DNA of 33,318 nucleotides. Origin: Anaerotruncus sp. G3(2012) (GTDB lineage Bacteria > Bacillota > Clostridia > Oscillospirales > Ruminococcaceae). Shown here in pieces: positions 1 to 33,318 of the stretch. Numbering within the stretch: position 1 is the first letter of the stretch; every line of letters begins with the position of its first letter. Where the stretch lies: NCBI RefSeq assembly GCF_000403395.2, contig NZ_KE159677.1:177272-210589 (forward strand). The letters are read 5' to 3'. Made by a program: the position numbers and the translations under genes. Under the pieces are notes generated by a model. The model was given only the letters and a program-made list of their open reading frames with translations. It was not told the DNA's origin and made no database searches.

Positions 1-102
1 TACCGGCCCCTCGCATCCCCTGTGGAACTGCCTCCCCAGACGTTCAAACCGTTTGAACGGAACGGGTTTACAGTGGTAGAATGGGGCGGTACCACGGCTT
101 AA
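1..102 (+). CDS. 3' end of a lipoprotein paralogue (partial, cut by window edge)
   Basis: An open frame enters from the left edge and stops with TAA at 100-102, giving the last 33 residues of a protein. The first 90 bases match 1246-1335, the end of the next gene, with only three differences, and the encoded residues differ at one position (K for E) over 30. The frame then diverges to a short ending, GTTA. This is therefore the end of a tandem copy of the gene at 283-1362. Its function is unknown. The high identity points to recent duplication or gene conversion. About 180 bases separate the stop from the next gene; no terminator or convincing promoter was seen there, so the two copies may be cotranscribed. 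Confidence 0.8.
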   Translation, partial: YRPLASPVELPPQTFKPFERNGFTVVEWGGTTA

Positions 103-11659: not shown

Positions 11660-12053
11660 TTTTGTTTCTCCTCCCGTACTTTCACCTGTGGGGACAAGCC
11701 CCTTCTGTAGCTCTTATTCTAGCGGAAAGGCAAAGCGGAATTTGTCGGTTTCGCAAGGCTTGGAAAATTCTTTTCCGGGCCTTGTGCGTATTGGATTATC
11801 GCAATCAAAAATCCCCTTTCCATGCCCCTCTGCCGCCGTACCGTAGGATGTGTTGCGCGTTTCGGAGCGCAGCGGCTCTCTTGATGCGCCAACCGGATGC
11901 CGGCTGGTGGAATGCCTGTCTGGGCACCGGACACCCCTCCTGGGAAGCGCTTTTTTCGGGTGGATTGCCGTCTGCCCCCCAAAGGCGGCAACAGGGGGCT
12001 TTTTCATCCGCAAAAAGCCCCCTGTTATCCTTTTGTCTGCCAGAATCAAACTT
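11660..12053. other. Intergenic stretch with a hairpin repeat
   Basis: No gene is supported in these 394 bases; the frames lack ribosome sites and recognisable proteins. The right part (11948-12026) is a hairpin-rich repeat also found at 28216-28289, described separately. Confidence 0.6.
11948..12026 (+). repeat. Hairpin repeat type 2, copy 1, ending in the rubrerythrin 3' hairpin
   Basis: The segment runs GCGCTTTTTTCGGGTG, ATTGCCG, a variable part, then a strong hairpin AACAGGGGGCTTTTT / AAAAAGCCCCCTGTT at 11990-12026. The same series occurs reverse-complemented at 28216-28289. The hairpin lies 28 bases past the rubrerythrin stop and may terminate that gene, although the T tract is inside the stem. 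Confidence 0.7.
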
Positions 12054-16331: not shown

Positions 16332-18047
16332 TTACTGGAGGAGCTGGAGCACGCTCTGCGGCTGCTGGTTAGCCTGCGCGAGCATTGCCTGTGCAGACTG
16401 GGTCAGCACGTTGACTTTGGTGTACTCCATCATCATCTTGGCCATATCGGTATCACGGATACGGCTGTTCGCGGACTGGAGGTTCTCGGACGCGGTGTCC
16501 AGGTTGTTGATGGTGTATTCCAGACGGTTCTGGGTAGCACCGAGGACCGCGCGCTGCTCGGAAACCTTGTCGATCGCGCTGCGGATGGTGTCGATCGCGG
16601 AAGCTGCGCCCTCACGCTTGGAGATATCCACATCTGCAACACCGATACCCAGCGAGCTCATGTTCGCAACCGAAACAGCAATCTGGTTGAAGGTATCCGC
16701 AGTGTCACCGATCTGGAGAATCAGGCCGCGATTGCCGCCCGCCATGCTCGAGCCGTTGGCCAGGCCGAGTGCCGACGCGATGTCTTTATCGCCGATGTCG
16801 CTGAAGCTGAACTTAACATCCTCGACATCCCCGTTGTACTTGATGAGGAAGCCGCCGTCGTCCGCCGCCTCGACAGTGAAGTCGTTTTTGTCCAGAGAGG
16901 TCAGACCGGAAGCCTTATCAAAAACACCACCGGTGGCGCTTAGGCCGTTCTGCTTGTTGTACTCATCAACCGCAATCTTAATCGCAGCGTCCAGTACCCC
17001 TGCGGCCGCAGACATCGTAGTCGCAGTCTGAGACGAAGTCTTGGTGATCTGGGTTGCAACAGTCACAACGACCTTGGTCCCGTTGATGTTCATCTGGAAG
17101 GTGGAATTTGCCGCGATGGTATCGCCGTTGTATTCGTTTCCGGCTTTGCTGACAACCGCCTCACCGGCTGCCGAACCGAACAGGAGGGCGCCCATCGCTG
17201 TTGCCGGGGCGGCTGCGGTGCTGCCAGCATAGGAGAACTCAGAAGACGAACCCTTGTTCAGGCTCTCAAATGTCAGCTTGCCACCTGCGCTCGAGCTGAT
17301 CTTCACGCCGCCCTTCAGGCCCTGCGCCTGCATCTCATTGTTGAACAGCTCAGTGAGTTTATCCGCATAATCCTTCATCTGATCGGTATCTGTTACAGTG
17401 TCCAGACCCGTTCCGCTAAGGGTCGCAAAGAGTTTCGCCGCATCGCTTCCAGCTTTGCTCCAGTCGATCTCCAGCTTCTGCCCATCAATGATGAACGTAT
17501 CCTTCGCAGCGACAGCAGATGTGGTATCGCCCACTGTTACTGACGTCGAAGCAGCCGAGAACTTGGAAATGTCGTTCGCGCCGGTGAAGGTGGTGCCGTT
17601 TGCGCTCACGTTGCCGCCGCCCAGCGAACCATCCAGCAGCTTGATGCCGTTGAAGTTGGTCGACTGCGAGATACGGTCGATTTCTTCCTGGAGTTTGTCA
17701 ACCTCGAGCTGGAGGGACTCGCGGTTCAGGTCCTCGTTGATGCCGTTCGCCGAACGGGTTGCCAGCTCGGTCATACGGTTGAGCATGTTGTGGACCTCGG
17801 TCAGCGCGCCTTCAGCGGTCTGTACCAGCGAGATACCATCCTGTGCGTTGAGCGAAGCGGTGTCCAGACCTTTGATCTGGGATTTCATCTTCTCCGAGAT
17901 CGCCAGACCGGAAGCGTCGTCGCCCGCGCGGTTGATGCGGTAACCGGAGGACAGCTTTTCCAGCGCCTTGGAAACCTGCGAGTTGTTCATGCCCAGCTGA
18001 CGCTGAGAGTTGACTGCCATAATGTTGCTTCTTACTACCATTCCCAT
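16332..18047 (-). CDS. fliC: Flagellin
   Basis: 571 residues. The N-terminal D0/D1 region is typical (MAVNSQRQLGMNNSQVSKAL, LSSGYRINRAGDDASGLAIS, QEEIDRISQSTNFNGIKLLDG), as is the C-terminal region (RAVLGATQNRLEYTINNLDT, RDTDMAKMMMEYTKVNVL, ending SVLQLLQ). Between about 150 and 470 is a long Ser/Thr/Ala/Gly-rich variable domain, a good target for O-glycosylation. It is the filament subunit, exported through the flagellar secretion system. AAGGAGG is 7 bases before the ATG. csrA lies upstream in the same direction, separated by a 300-base repeat. The leader carries CsrA-like sites (18048-18093). I found no sigma-28 promoter directly ahead. Confidence 0.97.
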   Translation of the reverse strand: MGMVVRSNIMAVNSQRQLGMNNSQVSKALEKLSSGYRINRAGDDASGLAISEKMKSQIKGLDTASLNAQDGISLVQTAEGALTEVHNMLNRMTELATRSANGINEDLNRESLQLEVDKLQEEIDRISQSTNFNGIKLLDGSLGGGNVSANGTTFTGANDISKFSAASTSVTVGDTTSAVAAKDTFIIDGQKLEIDWSKAGSDAAKLFATLSGTGLDTVTDTDQMKDYADKLTELFNNEMQAQGLKGGVKISSSAGGKLTFESLNKGSSSEFSYAGSTAAAPATAMGALLFGSAAGEAVVSKAGNEYNGDTIAANSTFQMNINGTKVVVTVATQITKTSSQTATTMSAAAGVLDAAIKIAVDEYNKQNGLSATGGVFDKASGLTSLDKNDFTVEAADDGGFLIKYNGDVEDVKFSFSDIGDKDIASALGLANGSSMAGGNRGLILQIGDTADTFNQIAVSVANMSSLGIGVADVDISKREGAASAIDTIRSAIDKVSEQRAVLGATQNRLEYTINNLDTASENLQSANSRIRDTDMAKMMMEYTKVNVLTQSAQAMLAQANQQPQSVLQLLQ

Positions 18048-18093
18048 GGTGAAACCTCCTTAAAAATTCTGCGGGTGATGTCCCTTCCACCCG
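18048..18093 (-). promoter_or_regulatory. Probable CsrA-binding leader of flagellin
   Basis: On the minus strand CGGGTG and CACCCG (18088-18093 and 18072-18077) form a hairpin with loop GAAGGGACAT, exposing a GGA like the CsrA consensus. A second GGA is in the AAGGAGG ribosome site (18055-18061). One hairpin site plus one SD site is how Bacillus hag is repressed by CsrA, and csrA is the next gene upstream. Binding is inferred. Confidence 0.6.
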
Positions 18094-18160
18094 TTTTTAT
18101 ATTTTTCAAGCCTGCCCGCTCCGCGGCGGCGGACAGACCGGAAAACAAAATCATCTGCGC

Positions 18161-18463
18161 GTCGGGGGCTCCGCCCCTCGACCCCGCAATTTTTTGAAAA
18201 AAATTGAGTAAAACTTTAATTTGTGAAAAGAAGAGAGCCGCCCAGCCTGCCGGGGTGGGGCCTACGGGGAGGGGTCGCCGACCCCTCGCCCGTAAGGCAA
18301 ACTGAGGGGGCGTCGCGGCGTATGCCGCGCTTCGGGCTGAAAGCCCGAGAAGTCCCCCGAAGAAGGGCGCTTGCGCCCCGGAAGTTTGGTCTGGAACCCA
18401 AACTTCCGTTGCCTCACTGCCCCTCGACCCCGCCACCTTTGAAAAGGTGGACGAAACTTTTGG
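18161..18463 (-). repeat. Modular GC-rich repeat, copy A (between csrA and flagellin)
   Basis: Read on the minus strand the order is: AAAGTTT and stem CCACCTTT/AAAGGTGG (18433-18450); GGGGTCGAGGGGC; arm-variable hairpin GGAAGTTTGG/CCAAACTTCC (18380-18407); GGGCGC/GCGCCC; CGGGCT/AGCCCG; GCGGC/GCCGC; AGGGGTC/GACCCCT; CCCCACCCCGGC; then a second end module with the alternative stem made of CAATTTTT arms (18187-18206), GGGGTCGAGGGGC and GGGGCGGAGCCCC. The same order occurs at 20011-20640 and, partly, at 28321-28499 and 33040-33318. It contains no gene with a ribosome site. Confidence 0.85.
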
Positions 18464-18465
18464 TT

Positions 18466-18708
18466 TCAGCGTGACGCTGATTTCGGGCCTGCTGCATAGT
18501 TTTTGCGCGGCTGGCTGTAACGCCGGCGGTCGTTTTCGATCACCGCCGGACGCGGGTGGGTACGTTCATACACTTCCCCGCGCACGATCGGGATTTCCCT
18601 CGGCGCGTCGATCGCGAGCTTGATGTCGCCATTCAGGCGGATCACCCGCACGACTACCCGGTCGTCGATCACCACATATTCTCCAACATTTGTCCCAAGA
18701 ACCAGCAT
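18466..18708 (-). CDS. csrA: Carbon storage regulator CsrA
   Basis: 80 residues. MLVLGTNVGEYVVIDDRVVV, then LAIDAPREIPIVRGEVYER, match CsrA, a dimeric RNA-binding repressor that blocks ribosome sites; in Firmicutes its main target is flagellin mRNA, with FliW as antagonist (fliW is not in the window). R43 matches the conserved RNA-contacting Arg, but the usual R6-K7 of region 1 is T6-N7 here, so RNA binding may differ. AAGGAGG lies 7 bases before the ATG at 18708. The tail beyond about residue 60 (ENDRRRYSQPRKNYAAGPKSASR) is longer than in most CsrA and runs up to the edge of repeat A, whose insertion may have changed the C-terminus. Confidence 0.88.
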   Translation of the reverse strand: MLVLGTNVGEYVVIDDRVVVRVIRLNGDIKLAIDAPREIPIVRGEVYERTHPRPAVIENDRRRYSQPRKNYAAGPKSASR

Positions 18709-18729
18709 ACGATTACCTCCTTGTAACGC

Positions 18730-18786
18730 AAAAAAGCCTTCCGGGGGTGTGACAAAAGGTATAGCCAATGTCACACCTCGGAAGGC
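18730..18786 (-). terminator. Terminator-like hairpin immediately ahead of csrA
   Basis: On the minus strand GCCTTCC..GGTGTGACA pairs with TGTCACACC..GGAAGGC and is followed by TTTTTT (18730-18735). The T run ends about 8 bases before the csrA ribosome site, leaving no room for a promoter, so csrA transcripts must read through it. It shares the TGTGACA/TGTCACA core with the hairpin at 18896-18937. The rest of 18787-19186 is AT-rich and has no supported gene. Confidence 0.7.
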
Positions 18787-18895
18787 GCGGATTTCTCCTA
18801 AAATATGAGATATTATTCCTATATCAGGGAAAATATTTATACGAAAGGTAAAATCTTCGTCTTATATACGGAAAATTTCCAGAAAAAACAAAAAG

Positions 18896-18937
18896 AGAGA
18901 CCTGTGACAAAAACTATACTTTTTGTCACAGGTCTCT
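18896..18937 (-). terminator. Long perfect hairpin upstream of csrA
   Basis: Arms of 18 bases (AGAGACCTGTGACAAAAA and its complement) flank a 6-base loop; on the minus strand a CTTTTTGTTTTTT tract follows. Weak sigma-A-like boxes (TTGGTT, 18 bases, TATAAA) lie at 18942-18971, placing a possible transcription start at the hairpin edge, and TTGTTT, 17 bases, TATATA lies just downstream of the hairpin. Confidence 0.7.
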
Positions 18938-19186
18938 ACTCTTTATATTCGTACGTCCCAACAGAAACCAAAGCAGTTTTGCAAAAAAAATTCAGAAACT
19001 TTTTAAAATCCATAAACCCGCATAAAAAGCGGCTTTCAGCGTATATCACCGTCCGTTTCACCCTGAAAAGCGGTCCAAAAAGAGGAGGTATCTCAGCCGG
19101 TATACCACCCCTTTTTCAGCAAGCCAGCGGCACAGGATTTCCTGTCCTAATCCGCTGATTTTGGGGGATTTTTGCCAGTTTCCGAC

Positions 19187-19861
19187 TCAATCCCTGATTT
19201 TTGCGAGGATTGTGACCGGTGCGCTGTCAATTCCCTCTATAAACAGAGGCAGTGCAAACACGGTTTCAAGTGTATCCGGATCAAGCCCGGAAAGGTCGAT
19301 ATCCTCAATAATCAGCACCGGTTCTGCCCCGGTTTTTCCAAGCATGATCTGATGTGCCCGGATCCCATCCTCAAGATGCAGCGGAGAAGACAGGGAAATC
19401 CAGTCCATGCCCACCGCTTTCAGATTCTGATACCGCTCGACAATCAGTTCTGCCGCCCGCGCGGAGATGGCAGGCCCCTCTTCCGAGTAGGCCCGGTTAT
19501 CCGAAGCACGCATAGCCGAGGATCCGCTGCGGACCAGCAGCAGGTCTGCGGCGCGGATCGCCTCGTCAAACCGCATCAGTTCCTCCGGCTCCACCAACTC
19601 CCCCCTGCCCTTGGGGATATCCACCAGAAGAGGCTTTTCAAAAATGAAGGTCGAAAGCTCCAGCTCATAGAGCTGTCTGCCCTGCCCGTTAAAATGGTTC
19701 GGTCCATCCATGTGGGTGCCGAAATGGTTGAACAGGGTCACATTGTAGGTATTGAGCCGGTCGCCCTTCTGCATCGACTCAAACGGTTCGATCCGCATGG
19801 TGGGCGCGCCGGGAAACGCATGGTCCCGGACATTCAGCGTGTAAGATAGACGCCTGTACAT
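19187..19861 (-). CDS. Cyclase family protein (kynurenine formamidase-like)
   Basis: 224 residues of the PF04199 cyclase/formamidase type. The metal-binding signature is NHFGTHMDGPNHF (HxGTHxDxPxH). LLLVRSGSS, YSEEGPAISARAAEL and GMDWISLSSPLH continue the fold, and a Glu-rich end follows. Members hydrolyse amides or cyclic esters such as N-formylkynurenine with a divalent metal; the substrate here is unknown, and no tryptophan-degradation gene is near. GGAGGG stands 7 bases before the ATG. Downstream is an imperfect hairpin near 19129-19159. It appears to be a single-gene unit between csrA and repeat B. Confidence 0.88.
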   Translation of the reverse strand: MYRRLSYTLNVRDHAFPGAPTMRIEPFESMQKGDRLNTYNVTLFNHFGTHMDGPNHFNGQGRQLYELELSTFIFEKPLLVDIPKGRGELVEPEELMRFDEAIRAADLLLVRSGSSAMRASDNRAYSEEGPAISARAAELIVERYQNLKAVGMDWISLSSPLHLEDGIRAHQIMLGKTGAEPVLIIEDIDLSGLDPDTLETVFALPLFIEGIDSAPVTILAKIRD

Positions 19862-20010
19862 TCCAATCCCTCCTGATTAAAGTTTTGCCCAATTTTTTCA
19901 CTGCCGCTGTATAGCATCACAGGCCAGCCGACGCGGAAAAGCGGCTCTGGGGGGCGTTTGTGTCCCCCAGTCCGTCGGAGAAATTCTGAAAACCTGTTTT
20001 CTATCGCATC
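19862..20010. other. Intergenic DNA before repeat B
   Basis: Apart from the ribosome site of the cyclase gene at its left end, nothing recognisable was seen. CCGACGCGG and GGGGGCG/TGTCCCCC-type short inverted pairs near 19928-19975 may be a degenerate repeat module. Confidence 0.4.
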
Positions 20011-20640
20011 AAAAGTTTCATCCACTTTTCCAGCGGAAGTCTGGTTCCAGACCAGACTTCCAGTCGCAAAGCGCATTCCTCGGGGCTTCTCGGGCTTTCA
20101 GCCCGAAGCGCGGCATACGCCGCGACGCCCCTGCGGGCTGTCTTGCGGGTTAGGGGTCACCGGGCGCATGTTGTTTTGGATTCCAGACCAAAACAACGCC
20201 CGTCGCTTCTCGGGCTTTCAGCCCGGAGCGCGTTTCACGCGACGCTCGGGCAGGATGCGCCTTGCGGGCGAGGGGTCAGCGACCCCTCCCCGCAGGCCCC
20301 ACCCCGACAAGCTGGGAGAAGTTCTCTTCTCTCTCATAACGAAAAGTTTCGTCCACCTTTTCAAAGGTGGCGGGGTCGAGGGGCAGTGAGACAGCGTCAG
20401 TTTGGTTCCAGACCAAACTGACAGGCGCAAAGCGCCTTCCTCGGGGCTTCTCGGGCTTTCAGCCCGAAGCGCGGCATACGCCGCGACGCCCCTGCGGGCT
20501 GTCTTGCGGGTTAGGGGTCAGCGACCCCTCCCCGCAGGCCCCACCCCGGCAAGCTGGGAGAAGTTCTCTTCTCTCTCATAACGAAAAGTTTCGTCCACCT
20601 TTTCAAAGGTGGCGGGGTCGAGGGGCGGAGCCCCCGTCGG
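20011..20640 (+). repeat. Modular GC-rich repeat, copy B (about three units in tandem)
   Basis: Three units, each with an arm-variable hairpin: 20035-20061 (arms GGAAGTCTGGT), 20161-20202 (GTTGTTTTGG inside CGGGCG) and 20396-20422 (GTCAGTTTGGT). Internal duplications are almost exact: 20271-20384 equals 20513-20626 with one mismatch, and 20076-20159 equals 20437-20520. End modules with CCACCTTT/AAAGGTGG stems are at 20353-20370 and 20595-20612, and the block closes with GGGGTCGAGGGGC and GGGGCGGAGCCCC. Open frames across it code for Pro/Arg-rich strings without ribosome sites. It lies between the 3' end of the membrane hydrolase gene (stop 6 bases away) and the cyclase gene. Confidence 0.9.
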
Positions 20641-28078: not shown

Positions 28079-28215
28079 ACGCCGCCCAAACCCATGAAAC
28101 CGTTGCAGCGCAATGGATTCGGGCGGCTGATACCTTTAACTGTCAAAAAAGGCCATAAGCCTAGGTCTTGTTTGAAAATAGAGAAATAGACGGATAGAGG
28201 CTGTTTGGTATCTTT

Positions 28216-28289
28216 GGCAAGGGGGCTTTTTCTCTTGCAAAAAGCCCCCTCTTGCCGCTTTGCGGCAATTCACCCGAAAAAAGCGCTTC
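28216..28289 (-). repeat. Hairpin repeat type 2, copy 2
   Basis: GGCAAG with GGGGGCTTTTT and AAAAAGCCCCC with CTTGCC form a strong hairpin, followed by GCCGC/GCGGC, then CAATTCACCCGAAAAAAGCG. The reverse complement matches 11948-12026 in order and sequence except for the variable central part. It directly adjoins modular repeat copy C. Confidence 0.7.
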
Positions 28290-28320
28290 ATAGGAGAAAG
28301 AGTTCCGCGCTCTGCGGAGC

Positions 28321-28499
28321 GCGTCGGGGGCTCTGCCCCTCGACCCCGCAATTTTTCGAGAAAAATTGAGTAAAGCTTTAGATACTGAACAACCCCTAAG
28401 CCCCACCCTGGCAAGCTGGGAGAAATTCTTTCCTCTTCCATAATCAAAAATTTCGTCCACCTTTTCAAAGGTGGCGGGGTCGAGGGGCGGAGCCCCCGC
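28321..28499. repeat. Modular GC-rich repeat, copy C (two end modules facing outward)
   Basis: Left part, on the minus strand: AAAGC, a stem of CAATTTTT/AAAAATTG type (28349-28368), GGGGTCGAGGGGC, GAGCCCCC. Right part, on the plus strand: CCCCACCCTGGCAAGCTGGG, CCACCTTT/AAAGGTGG (28457-28474), GGGGTCGAGGGGCGGAGCCC. The central hairpins of the full unit are absent, so this is an internally deleted or minimal form with inverted ends. It lies just past the plsY stop. Confidence 0.8.
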
Positions 28500-33039: not shown

Positions 33040-33318
33040 TGAATCGGGGGCTCCGCAGATATCCCGTATCTTTTGAGGCAACGGAAGTTTGGGTTCCAGA
33101 CCAAACTTCCGGGGCGCAAGCGCCCTTCTTCGGGGGACTTCTCGAACCTGCGGTCCGGACTGCGAGCCGCAGCGAGCGTTTCGAGGCCAACCGCCACAGG
33201 CGGCTCTTAGGCCGAGATCGCGGCGTACGCCGCGACGCCCCCTCAGTTTGCCTTGCGGGCTAGGGGTCGGTGACCCCTCCCCGCAGGCCCCACCCCGATG
33301 GGGCAAAGTGCGCTTTTT
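33040..33318 (+). repeat. Modular GC-rich repeat, copy D (cut by window edge)
   Basis: Contains the arm-variable hairpin GGAAGTTTGG/CCAAACTTCC at 33083-33110, identical to copy A, then GGGCGC/GCGCCC, a replaced central part (33146-33222) with new inverted pairs, GCGGC/GCCGC, AGGGGTC/GACCCCT and CCCCACCCCG. The CGGGCT/AGCCCG hairpin of the other copies is missing, replaced by about 75 bases not seen elsewhere. Confidence 0.8.

What the first reader, a model, noticed from the sequence alone, without database searches (positions are those of the whole stretch)
18161..20640. Modular intergenic repeat family with ordered hairpin modules
Four loci (18161-18463, 20011-20640, 28321-28499, 33040-33318) share a fixed order of hairpin modules ending in GGGGTCGAGGGGC and GGGGCGGAGCCCC. 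Copy B is a tandem of about three units with nearly exact internal duplications (114 bases with one mismatch; 84 identical bases), copy C keeps only the two ends facing outward, and copy D has its centre replaced. All are intergenic and none carries a plausible gene. This looks like a non-autonomous mobile or recombining element, or an RNA-structured extragenic repeat; I know no named family that fits.
Basis: partly seen in the sequence, partly recalled or inferred. Interest (0 to 1): 0.78.

Follow-up and report, generated by a model that had tools for sequence, protein, structure and literature searches.

The report
Mobile hairpin repeats in Clostridia
The four matching stretches are broken and rearranged copies of a small jumping DNA element made of five hairpins, with no gene of its own, which is present in dozens of copies in this bacterium and in several to many copies in a minority of its relatives across a whole bacterial order, where the hairpins keep their shape while their letters change.

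Summary
The repeats are real: the 20-nt module occurs 56 times in the 3.6-Mb genome (reversed control 0). Relatives show that the unit is a ~200-bp element, here called E: inverted ends, a 3-bp TWA target duplication, five hairpins in fixed order, no gene. At three orthologous sites E is present in a near relative and absent from the host; one site is the reverse. A congener carries an IS5-type insertion sequence with the same outer end sequence and a TAA duplication, so E is best read as a non-autonomous, MITE-like element moved in trans; the transposase link is inferred. Window copies A, B and D carry an extra ~200-nt block (M). Copy B's array stands where the relative has a ~75-bp piece of E, and at one nearly identical site the two genomes differ by one M unit and by a swapped pair of hairpins. 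D's replaced centre is a second, ~60-nt hairpin module (Z) that inserts into loops of E's hairpins. An E model matches 39 of 295 genomes of the order (28 of 149 genera), 32 of them in two or more copies, with compensated changes in most stem pairs. Rfam has no match. Closest kinds: pneumococcal BOX elements and REPINs. Function is open.

The parts
18161..18463 (-). Copy A: S module, M block, S module, H2 tip; tail and inverted ends not recognised. Lies between csrA (stop at 18466) and the flagellin gene
   Evidence: relative G197 has a complete E core without M at the same place
18433..18450 (-). Hairpin H1 of the first S (CCACCTTTTCAAAGGTGG)
18187..18206 (-). Hairpin H1 of the second S, other sequence type (CAATTTTTTTCAAAAAATTG)
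20011..20640 (+). Copy B: array of M and S modules ending in the H2 tip
   Evidence: relative G197 has only an ~75-bp end-plus-S piece here
20353..20384 (+). Internal S of copy B (H1 plus GCGGGGTCGAGGGGC)
20595..20637 (+). Terminal S of copy B (H1, GGGGTCGAGGGGC, H2 GGGGCGGAGCCCC)
28197..28396 (-). Copy C, left part: E element with both inverted ends and hairpins H1-H5; no target duplication at this copy
28381..28396 (-). 5' inverted end of that E (GGGGTTGTTCAGTATC)
28197..28212 (+). 3' inverted end of that E (GAGGCTGTTTGGTATC)
28397..28499 (+). Copy C, right part: end of an M block, S and H2 of a second element
33074..33318 (+). Copy D: M block, cut by the window end
33160..33218 (-). Module Z (59 nt) inserted in the M block of copy D
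11937..12024 (+). E tail relic (linker, H4, H5), ends approximate
   Evidence: (D7, I13)

Best explanation
The repeats are copies and debris of a small non-autonomous mobile DNA element (E, ~200 bp). Shown: complete copies have inverted ends (about GARCCTRTTYNRNATC) and often a 3-bp duplication TTA or TAA; no gene was seen in it; it has five hairpins in fixed order (H1-H2-H3, a linker with GGGTGAA, H4-H5); it is present or absent at orthologous sites of a close relative; copies favour gaps between convergent genes and avoid divergent ones. Inferred: an IS5-type transposase acting in trans moves it, because an IS5-type element with the same outer end GAGCCTRT and a TAA duplication exists in a congener. 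Larger versions carry an extra M block between two S modules. Because S modules are direct repeats, unequal recombination can multiply or delete M in place, and whole hairpin blocks are exchanged between copies. A second tiny module, Z, inserts into hairpin loops of E, into M and into itself. Stems keep pairing while their letters change, because E must fold as single-stranded DNA or RNA at some step, or because one arm templates the other during replication, with block exchange spreading the results; these cannot be told apart here.
For: Ends: TNAGAGCCTGTTYNRANTC (up to 2 mismatches) occurs 152 times in relative G197 against 3 reversed controls, 37 against 2 in G000, and 17 against 4 in G157. 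Of 63 end pairs found in the fetched loci, 32 have TNA on both sides and 24 of these 32 have identical 3-mers. E inside Z copies (L134, L137) shows the duplicated TTA/TAA, uninterrupted Z giving the empty site. Orthologous sites filled in G197 and empty in G000: C1:773123 (clean), C18:280272 (less clean) and L136/L026; filled in G000 and empty in G197: L148/L093. Copy B: ~640 bp in G000 where G197 has ~75 bp. L124 (G197) and L027 (G000), nearly identical on both sides, differ by one M unit and by the H2-H3 block. An M-bearing unit of 444 bp has both ends and TAA on both sides (L012). IS L167 of G157: 917 bp, ends AGAGCCTATCCCRAAAT, TAA on both sides, Pfam DUF4096 and DDE_Tnp_1. Copies: 58 matching pieces in G000, 6 in G157, 0 in G064. 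Patchy spread: 39 of 295 genomes of the order, 13 of 291 of the class. Context: convergent gaps 19 of 53 against 49 of 270, divergent 5 of 53 against 71 of 270, Fisher p 0.006 and 0.007.
Against: In one search only 10 of 75 core copies had both ends recognisable (28 right only, 1 left only, 36 none), and 5 of the 10 had identical 3-mers. Window copy C has both ends but no duplication. As targets are mostly TTA or TAA, about half of random pairs would agree, so 24 of 32 is moderate evidence, and some of the 63 pairs share an end. No element with exactly E's ends around a transposase was found: of 31 IS or Y1 loci scanned, five had weak matches to the end pattern (L175 one on each strand, 2.8 kb apart, with unlike flanks), none at the ends of its IS. 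The G157 copies show no such ends by eye. In other genera the sequence outside the core differs, so these ends cannot be the vehicle everywhere. In the structure counts one control was not beaten: further pair types were reached by 49 of 500 shuffles and 26 of 500.
Confidence: 0.75

Rival explanations
1. The three 5' hairpins form a conserved structured RNA with a cellular role, for example in 3' untranslated regions, carried to new places by mobile ends. Selection on the RNA keeps the fold.
For: 96.7% of cells paired and 37 of 42 pairs with double changes in 35 CM matches; loops and linkers conserved while stems change. G-T exceeds A-C in stems once one misregistered pair is left out: 36 to 15, 26 to 11 and 16 to 11 cells. 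Same core with different flanking sequence in different lineages. Gene 3' ends favoured. Four promoter-like sites in L194 against 0.3 expected, two overlapping ones at E's 5' end pointing into E (consensus matches only).
Against: Patchy, multicopy distribution and presence/absence between relatives; with all pairs kept, G-T to A-C was 36 to 43, 29 to 20 and 19 to 28; rows are not independent and whole hairpin blocks are exchanged; no Rfam match; no expression data.
Confidence: 0.2
2. E is a REP/REPIN-type element moved as single-stranded DNA by a Y1 (RAYT-like) transposase.
For: Hairpins, extragenic position and compensatory stem changes also occur in REPINs (PMC3116915, passages seen). One Y1_Tnp gene exists in G000; its locus has one weak match to the H1-H3 model (13.7 bits, E 0.022).
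Against: E copies show a 3-bp target duplication, which REPINs are not known to make (recalled). The Y1 locus had no E end pattern, and true G000 copies score about 90 bits, not 13.7.
Confidence: 0.05
3. The covariation is mutational: template switching between arms corrects imperfect palindromes, and recombination between copies swaps whole hairpins, so stems stay perfect without selection; the element is ordinary parasitic DNA.
For: At one site with nearly identical surroundings H2 and H3 have changed as a block; only a modest G-T excess over A-C, or none with all pairs kept; H4 differs in length between copies and is still paired. Palindrome correction by template switching is an established process (recalled).
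Against: Loop and linker sequences are conserved across genera while stems turn over, which neither process alone explains.
Confidence: 0.3

Closest known systems
BOX elements of Streptococcus pneumoniae (PMC3049150, passages seen)
   Same: Small, highly folded, modular with a variable number of central modules; inverted ends and target duplications; over-represented between convergent genes; repeats inserted into one another
   Different: Reported there from streptococci, with other modules; E has five hairpins with extensive compensated stem change and a core found in 28 genera of its order. Sequences were not compared
REP/REPIN elements with RAYT transposases (PMC3116915, passages seen)
   Same: Extragenic hairpins, non-autonomous, compensatory changes in stems, tandem clusters
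   Different: E has end sequences with a 3-bp duplication; no convincing Y1 association
MITEs of IS5-family insertion sequences (family properties recalled)
   Same: Ends beginning GAGCC, short TWA target duplication, size, no gene; an IS5-type element with similar outer ends in a congener
   Different: Match limited to about the outer 8 bases; rich conserved secondary structure; other ends in other lineages
Insertion sequences that target REP palindromes (Tobes and Pareja 2006, seen only as a reference; content recalled)
   Same: Z, like those elements, inserts into hairpins of another repeat

Membership tests
MITE (non-autonomous inverted-repeat element) | Terminal inverted repeats | tested here: met
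   only 10 of 75 core copies kept both recognisable ends
MITE (non-autonomous inverted-repeat element) | Target site duplication on insertion | tested here: met
   24 of 32 TNA-flanked pairs identical; empty site with TTA duplication; absent at window copy C
MITE (non-autonomous inverted-repeat element) | No transposase gene, small, many copies | tested here: met
MITE (non-autonomous inverted-repeat element) | Ends shared with an autonomous element | tested here: inconclusive
   L167 shares the outer GAGCCTRT and a TAA duplication but not the inner end; no full match in the loci scanned
IS5-family derivative | Mobilised by an IS5-family transposase | not testable with these tools
   needs an assay
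BOX element | boxA, boxB and boxC sequences | not tested
   no BOX sequence was compared
REP/REPIN | Associated RAYT gene flanked by the repeat | tested here: not met
   one Y1_Tnp in G000; no E end pattern in its locus and one weak model match, 13.7 bits, E 0.022; other genomes not searched for Y1_Tnp
Known Rfam RNA family | Covariance-model match | tested here: not met
   0 at gathering score in the window; in L194, L205 and L012 only BSnc120, 23.2 bits against a cut-off of 114

The most novel reading that the evidence does not exclude
The H1-H2-H3 core is an ancient structured nucleic acid, kept by selection for its fold and loop sequences, that has been carried by different mobile vehicles in different lineages of Clostridia and serves a shared purpose (as RNA or single-stranded DNA), while a second ~60-nt hairpin parasite, Z, specialises in inserting into the loops of such hairpins without target duplication: nested parasites of DNA shape rather than of sequence.
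Probability: 0.2. Interest if true: 0.85.

Novelty: new variant of a known kind. Interest (0 to 1): 0.62.

Why it matters
Small folded mobile elements shape bacterial intergenic DNA, but a family whose fold can be followed through 28 genera of an order while its letters change is unusual. It offers a direct test of whether such folds are kept by selection, by the transposition step, or by replication errors and exchange between copies. The Z module gives a clean case of insertion into hairpin loops.

Tried and rejected
Rejected: H5 as an intrinsic terminator. The hairpin AGGGGGCTTTTT...AAAAAGCCCCCT has its T-run inside the stem, and the scan called no terminator within E of L194. In the window scan the only call inside the E of copy C was the H3 stem 28304-28318, among 17 found for 13.7 expected.

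Rejected: Y1/RAYT mobilisation of E. Not found: an autonomous IS with exactly E's ends in the loci scanned; the 851-bp G000 IS with ends TAGGGCTTGTTTGAAAA goes with another set of small repeats.

Led nowhere: Rfam at a permissive threshold; viral contigs with an exact core, 3 and 2, not followed; paper searches for a named repeat in these bacteria, none of whose listed papers names it by title or abstract.

Caveats: gene context used longest-ORF calls (90 aa for E, 100 aa for the background), not curated annotation, with copies of three related genomes pooled; 10 of 59 and 5 of 30 E copies fell inside such an ORF, unchecked. Gaps of the background loci that held a repeat motif gave 27 of 96 convergent and 14 of 96 divergent. 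A1 (59 rows) is 56 of the 81 candidates plus three from L194, L197 and L199; the rest, mostly Z-bearing copies and false pickups, were left out. A2 kept two doubtful reversed matches. A3 used 51 of the 55 stretches. G157 has E copies but is not among the matched genomes; whether it was drawn is not shown. Parts of G197 are about 99% identical to G000 while most is 77-92%: recent transfer or a binning error cannot be excluded. The Z pattern itself required a T after the right end.
Full report
What is in the window. The four loci carry one repeat family. The 21-nt end module is found 4 times in the window at up to 3 mismatches, with none expected from shuffles. In the whole genome (G000, 3,618,922 bases in 24 contigs) the 20-nt module is found 56 times with up to 2 mismatches and its reversed control never. 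A 301-base piece of copy B has 57 matches.

The host. No name is given for G000. An exact 23-nt pattern hit contigs titled Anaerotruncus sp. S30_Bin7 and an uncultured Ruminococcus. S30_Bin7 (handle G197) is syntenic with G000, mostly at 77-92% nucleotide identity with some stretches near 99%, so I treat it as a near relative; the tool told no kinship for it. G157 and G064 are told as same genus. NCBI places Anaerotruncus in Oscillospiraceae, Clostridia.

The real unit. Aligning copies from G000, G197 and G157 shows a core of about 160 nt with five hairpins in fixed order. The two S types are alternative H1 stems. An M-bearing unit of 444 bp still has both ends and a TAA duplication (L012). 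Window copies A, B and D are M-bearing fragments; copy C is one E with both ends next to a fragment of another.

Mobility. The end pattern is found 152 times in G197 against 3 reversed controls, 37 against 2 in G000 and 17 against 4 in G157. Among 63 end pairs in the fetched loci (every pair the script found, some without E inside and some sharing an end), 32 have TNA on both sides, and 24 of the 32 have the same three bases. A stricter earlier look is less favourable: of 75 core copies, 10 had both ends, 28 only the right, 1 only the left, 36 none, and 5 of the 10 had identical 3-mers. Two G197 copies sit inside the Z repeat, whose uninterrupted copies show the empty site. Orthologous sites: G197 filled and G000 empty at C1:773123 (clean, TTA duplicated), at C18:280272 (less clean) and at L136/L026; G000 filled and G197 empty at L148/L093.

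What might move it. G000 has 30 matches to DDE_Tnp_1. Of 31 IS or Y1 loci scanned with E's end pattern, five had weak matches, none at the ends of its IS. In G157, locus L167 is a 917-bp IS with two overlapping frames (DUF4096; DDE_Tnp_1), inverted ends AGAGCCTATCCCRAAAT and, read by me, TAA on both sides. The outer bases and the target agree with E; the inner end does not. I infer an IS5-type transposase acting in trans. That IS5 groups make TNA-type duplications is recalled; the passages seen in PMC12730594 only list the groups.

Arrays and module exchange. At copy B the relative has about 75 bp, one end plus S, where G000 has about 640 bp. At copy A the relative has a complete E core without M, and what looks like a duplicated csrA-flagellin locus in G000 (C1:295278) has S plus tail without M. 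The clearest case is L124 (G197) against L027 (G000): the 50-column windows of both flanks are mostly 48-50 identical out to about 1.2 kb on either side, yet between them G000 has one extra S-M unit, and the H2-H3 block is of a different type, both types paired. So modules are gained or lost and hairpins exchanged as blocks. The direction of change and unequal recombination as its cause are inference.

The Z module. A script for [stem]-TAAGAG-[hairpin]-TT-[stem] found 35 matches (33 distinct) against 2 in reversed sequence. A boundary pattern then collected 46 copies, distinct with their flanks, of 57-65 nt. By flanks, 13 lie in the loop of H3, 10 in the loop of H1, 2 in H2, 2 in the linker, 4 in another Z, and 15 were not classified (several of these lie in M). 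Many H3 cases are one E subfamily and not independent. Compared by eye with empty copies, the H1, H2 and H3 insertions are exact and without duplication. A T follows the right end; one search required it, but, which did not, 28 of 33 distinct copies show it by eye, two do not and three could not be judged. Copy D's replaced centre is such an insertion.

Structure. On 59 E copies of three related genomes, 96.6% of cells pair and 15 of 43 pairs show double changes; shuffles never reached the covariation score (0 of 500), but 49 of 500 reached the number of further pair types. On 35 covariance-model matches, 34 of them from other genomes, 96.7% of cells pair and 37 of 42 pairs have double changes (that alignment was fitted to the model, and two rows are doubtful). 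On a MAFFT alignment of 51 H1-H3 blocks, 94.8% pair and 20 of 25 pairs have double changes, with 26 of 500 shuffles reaching the number of pair types. Stem letters turn over while loops and linkers stay. G-T against A-C in stems is 36:43, 29:20 and 19:28 over all cells, and 36:15, 26:11 and 16:11 after leaving out the one pair that is out of register; this leans to RNA only weakly. The block swap shows that rows are not independent.

Spread. The E model matches 39 of 295 genomes of the order, 28 of 149 genera and eight family labels; 32 of the 39 have two or more matches, and three of the 39 have a best E-value of only about 1e-4 to 1e-3. About nine candidates per genome were scored, so copy numbers are lower bounds. 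Several distant matches cover only the H1-H3 part. The H1-H3 model matches 13 of 291 genomes of the class, seven of them outside the order. In three other genomes the copies have different sequences outside the core, so the core is older than any one set of ends, or the ends evolve fast.

Position. By simple ORF calls, gaps holding E are convergent in 19 of 53 cases with both neighbours, against 49 of 270 gaps without motif, and divergent in 5 of 53 against 71 of 270. In other genera 13 of 26 are convergent and 3 of 26 divergent. PMC3049150 (passages) reads the same bias in BOX and RUP as tolerance of mobile DNA away from promoters.

Known kinds. BOX elements share modularity, folding, inverted ends, duplications, position bias and mutual insertion. 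REPINs share compensatory stem changes and clusters. Rfam has no match. A survey of structured RNAs in human microbiomes (PMC8040213, passages) lists 250 palindromic candidates, 230 of them predicted terminators; their sequences were not compared with E. I therefore rate this a new variant of a known kind: a folded, modular, MITE-like repeat, unusual in breadth, in stem turnover and in hosting a loop-inserting parasite.

Noticed in passing
window 33160-33218; L058, L100, L163, L198 and others: Module Z, ~60 nt, a hairpin repeat found inserted in loops of other hairpins and in itself, without duplication in the cases compared.
   Followed up: partly
L124 and L027: Two genomes nearly identical on both sides of an E copy differ there by one S-M unit and by a swapped H2-H3 block; the near identity itself, far above the rest, suggests recent transfer or a binning error.
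   Followed up: partly
L179-L185, L189; near E in L195, L202, L035: A second set of repeats with ends TAGGGGCTGTTTGAAAAATCG / TTTTCAAACAAGCCCTA, apparently small relatives of an 851-bp IS of G000 with ends TAGGGCTTGTTTGAAAA.
   Followed up: partly
flanks of E in L035, L038, L040, L049: A further repeat (GTATTCACAACCATTTGATRCCGTCTG ... CTTGCAATACACAAAG ... TGATTATGAATACAGG) abuts or lies near E in G000.
   Followed up: no
window 16332-18774 and G000 C1 near 295278: The csrA-flagellin locus appears duplicated in the genome, and the two copies carry differently rearranged E derivatives.
   Followed up: partly
window 1-93 and 1246-1338: 93-base direct repeat, 96% identical.
   Followed up: no
L244-L248: Five stretches of viral contigs hold an exact E core; whether these are prophage edges or true phage copies was not examined.
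   Followed up: no
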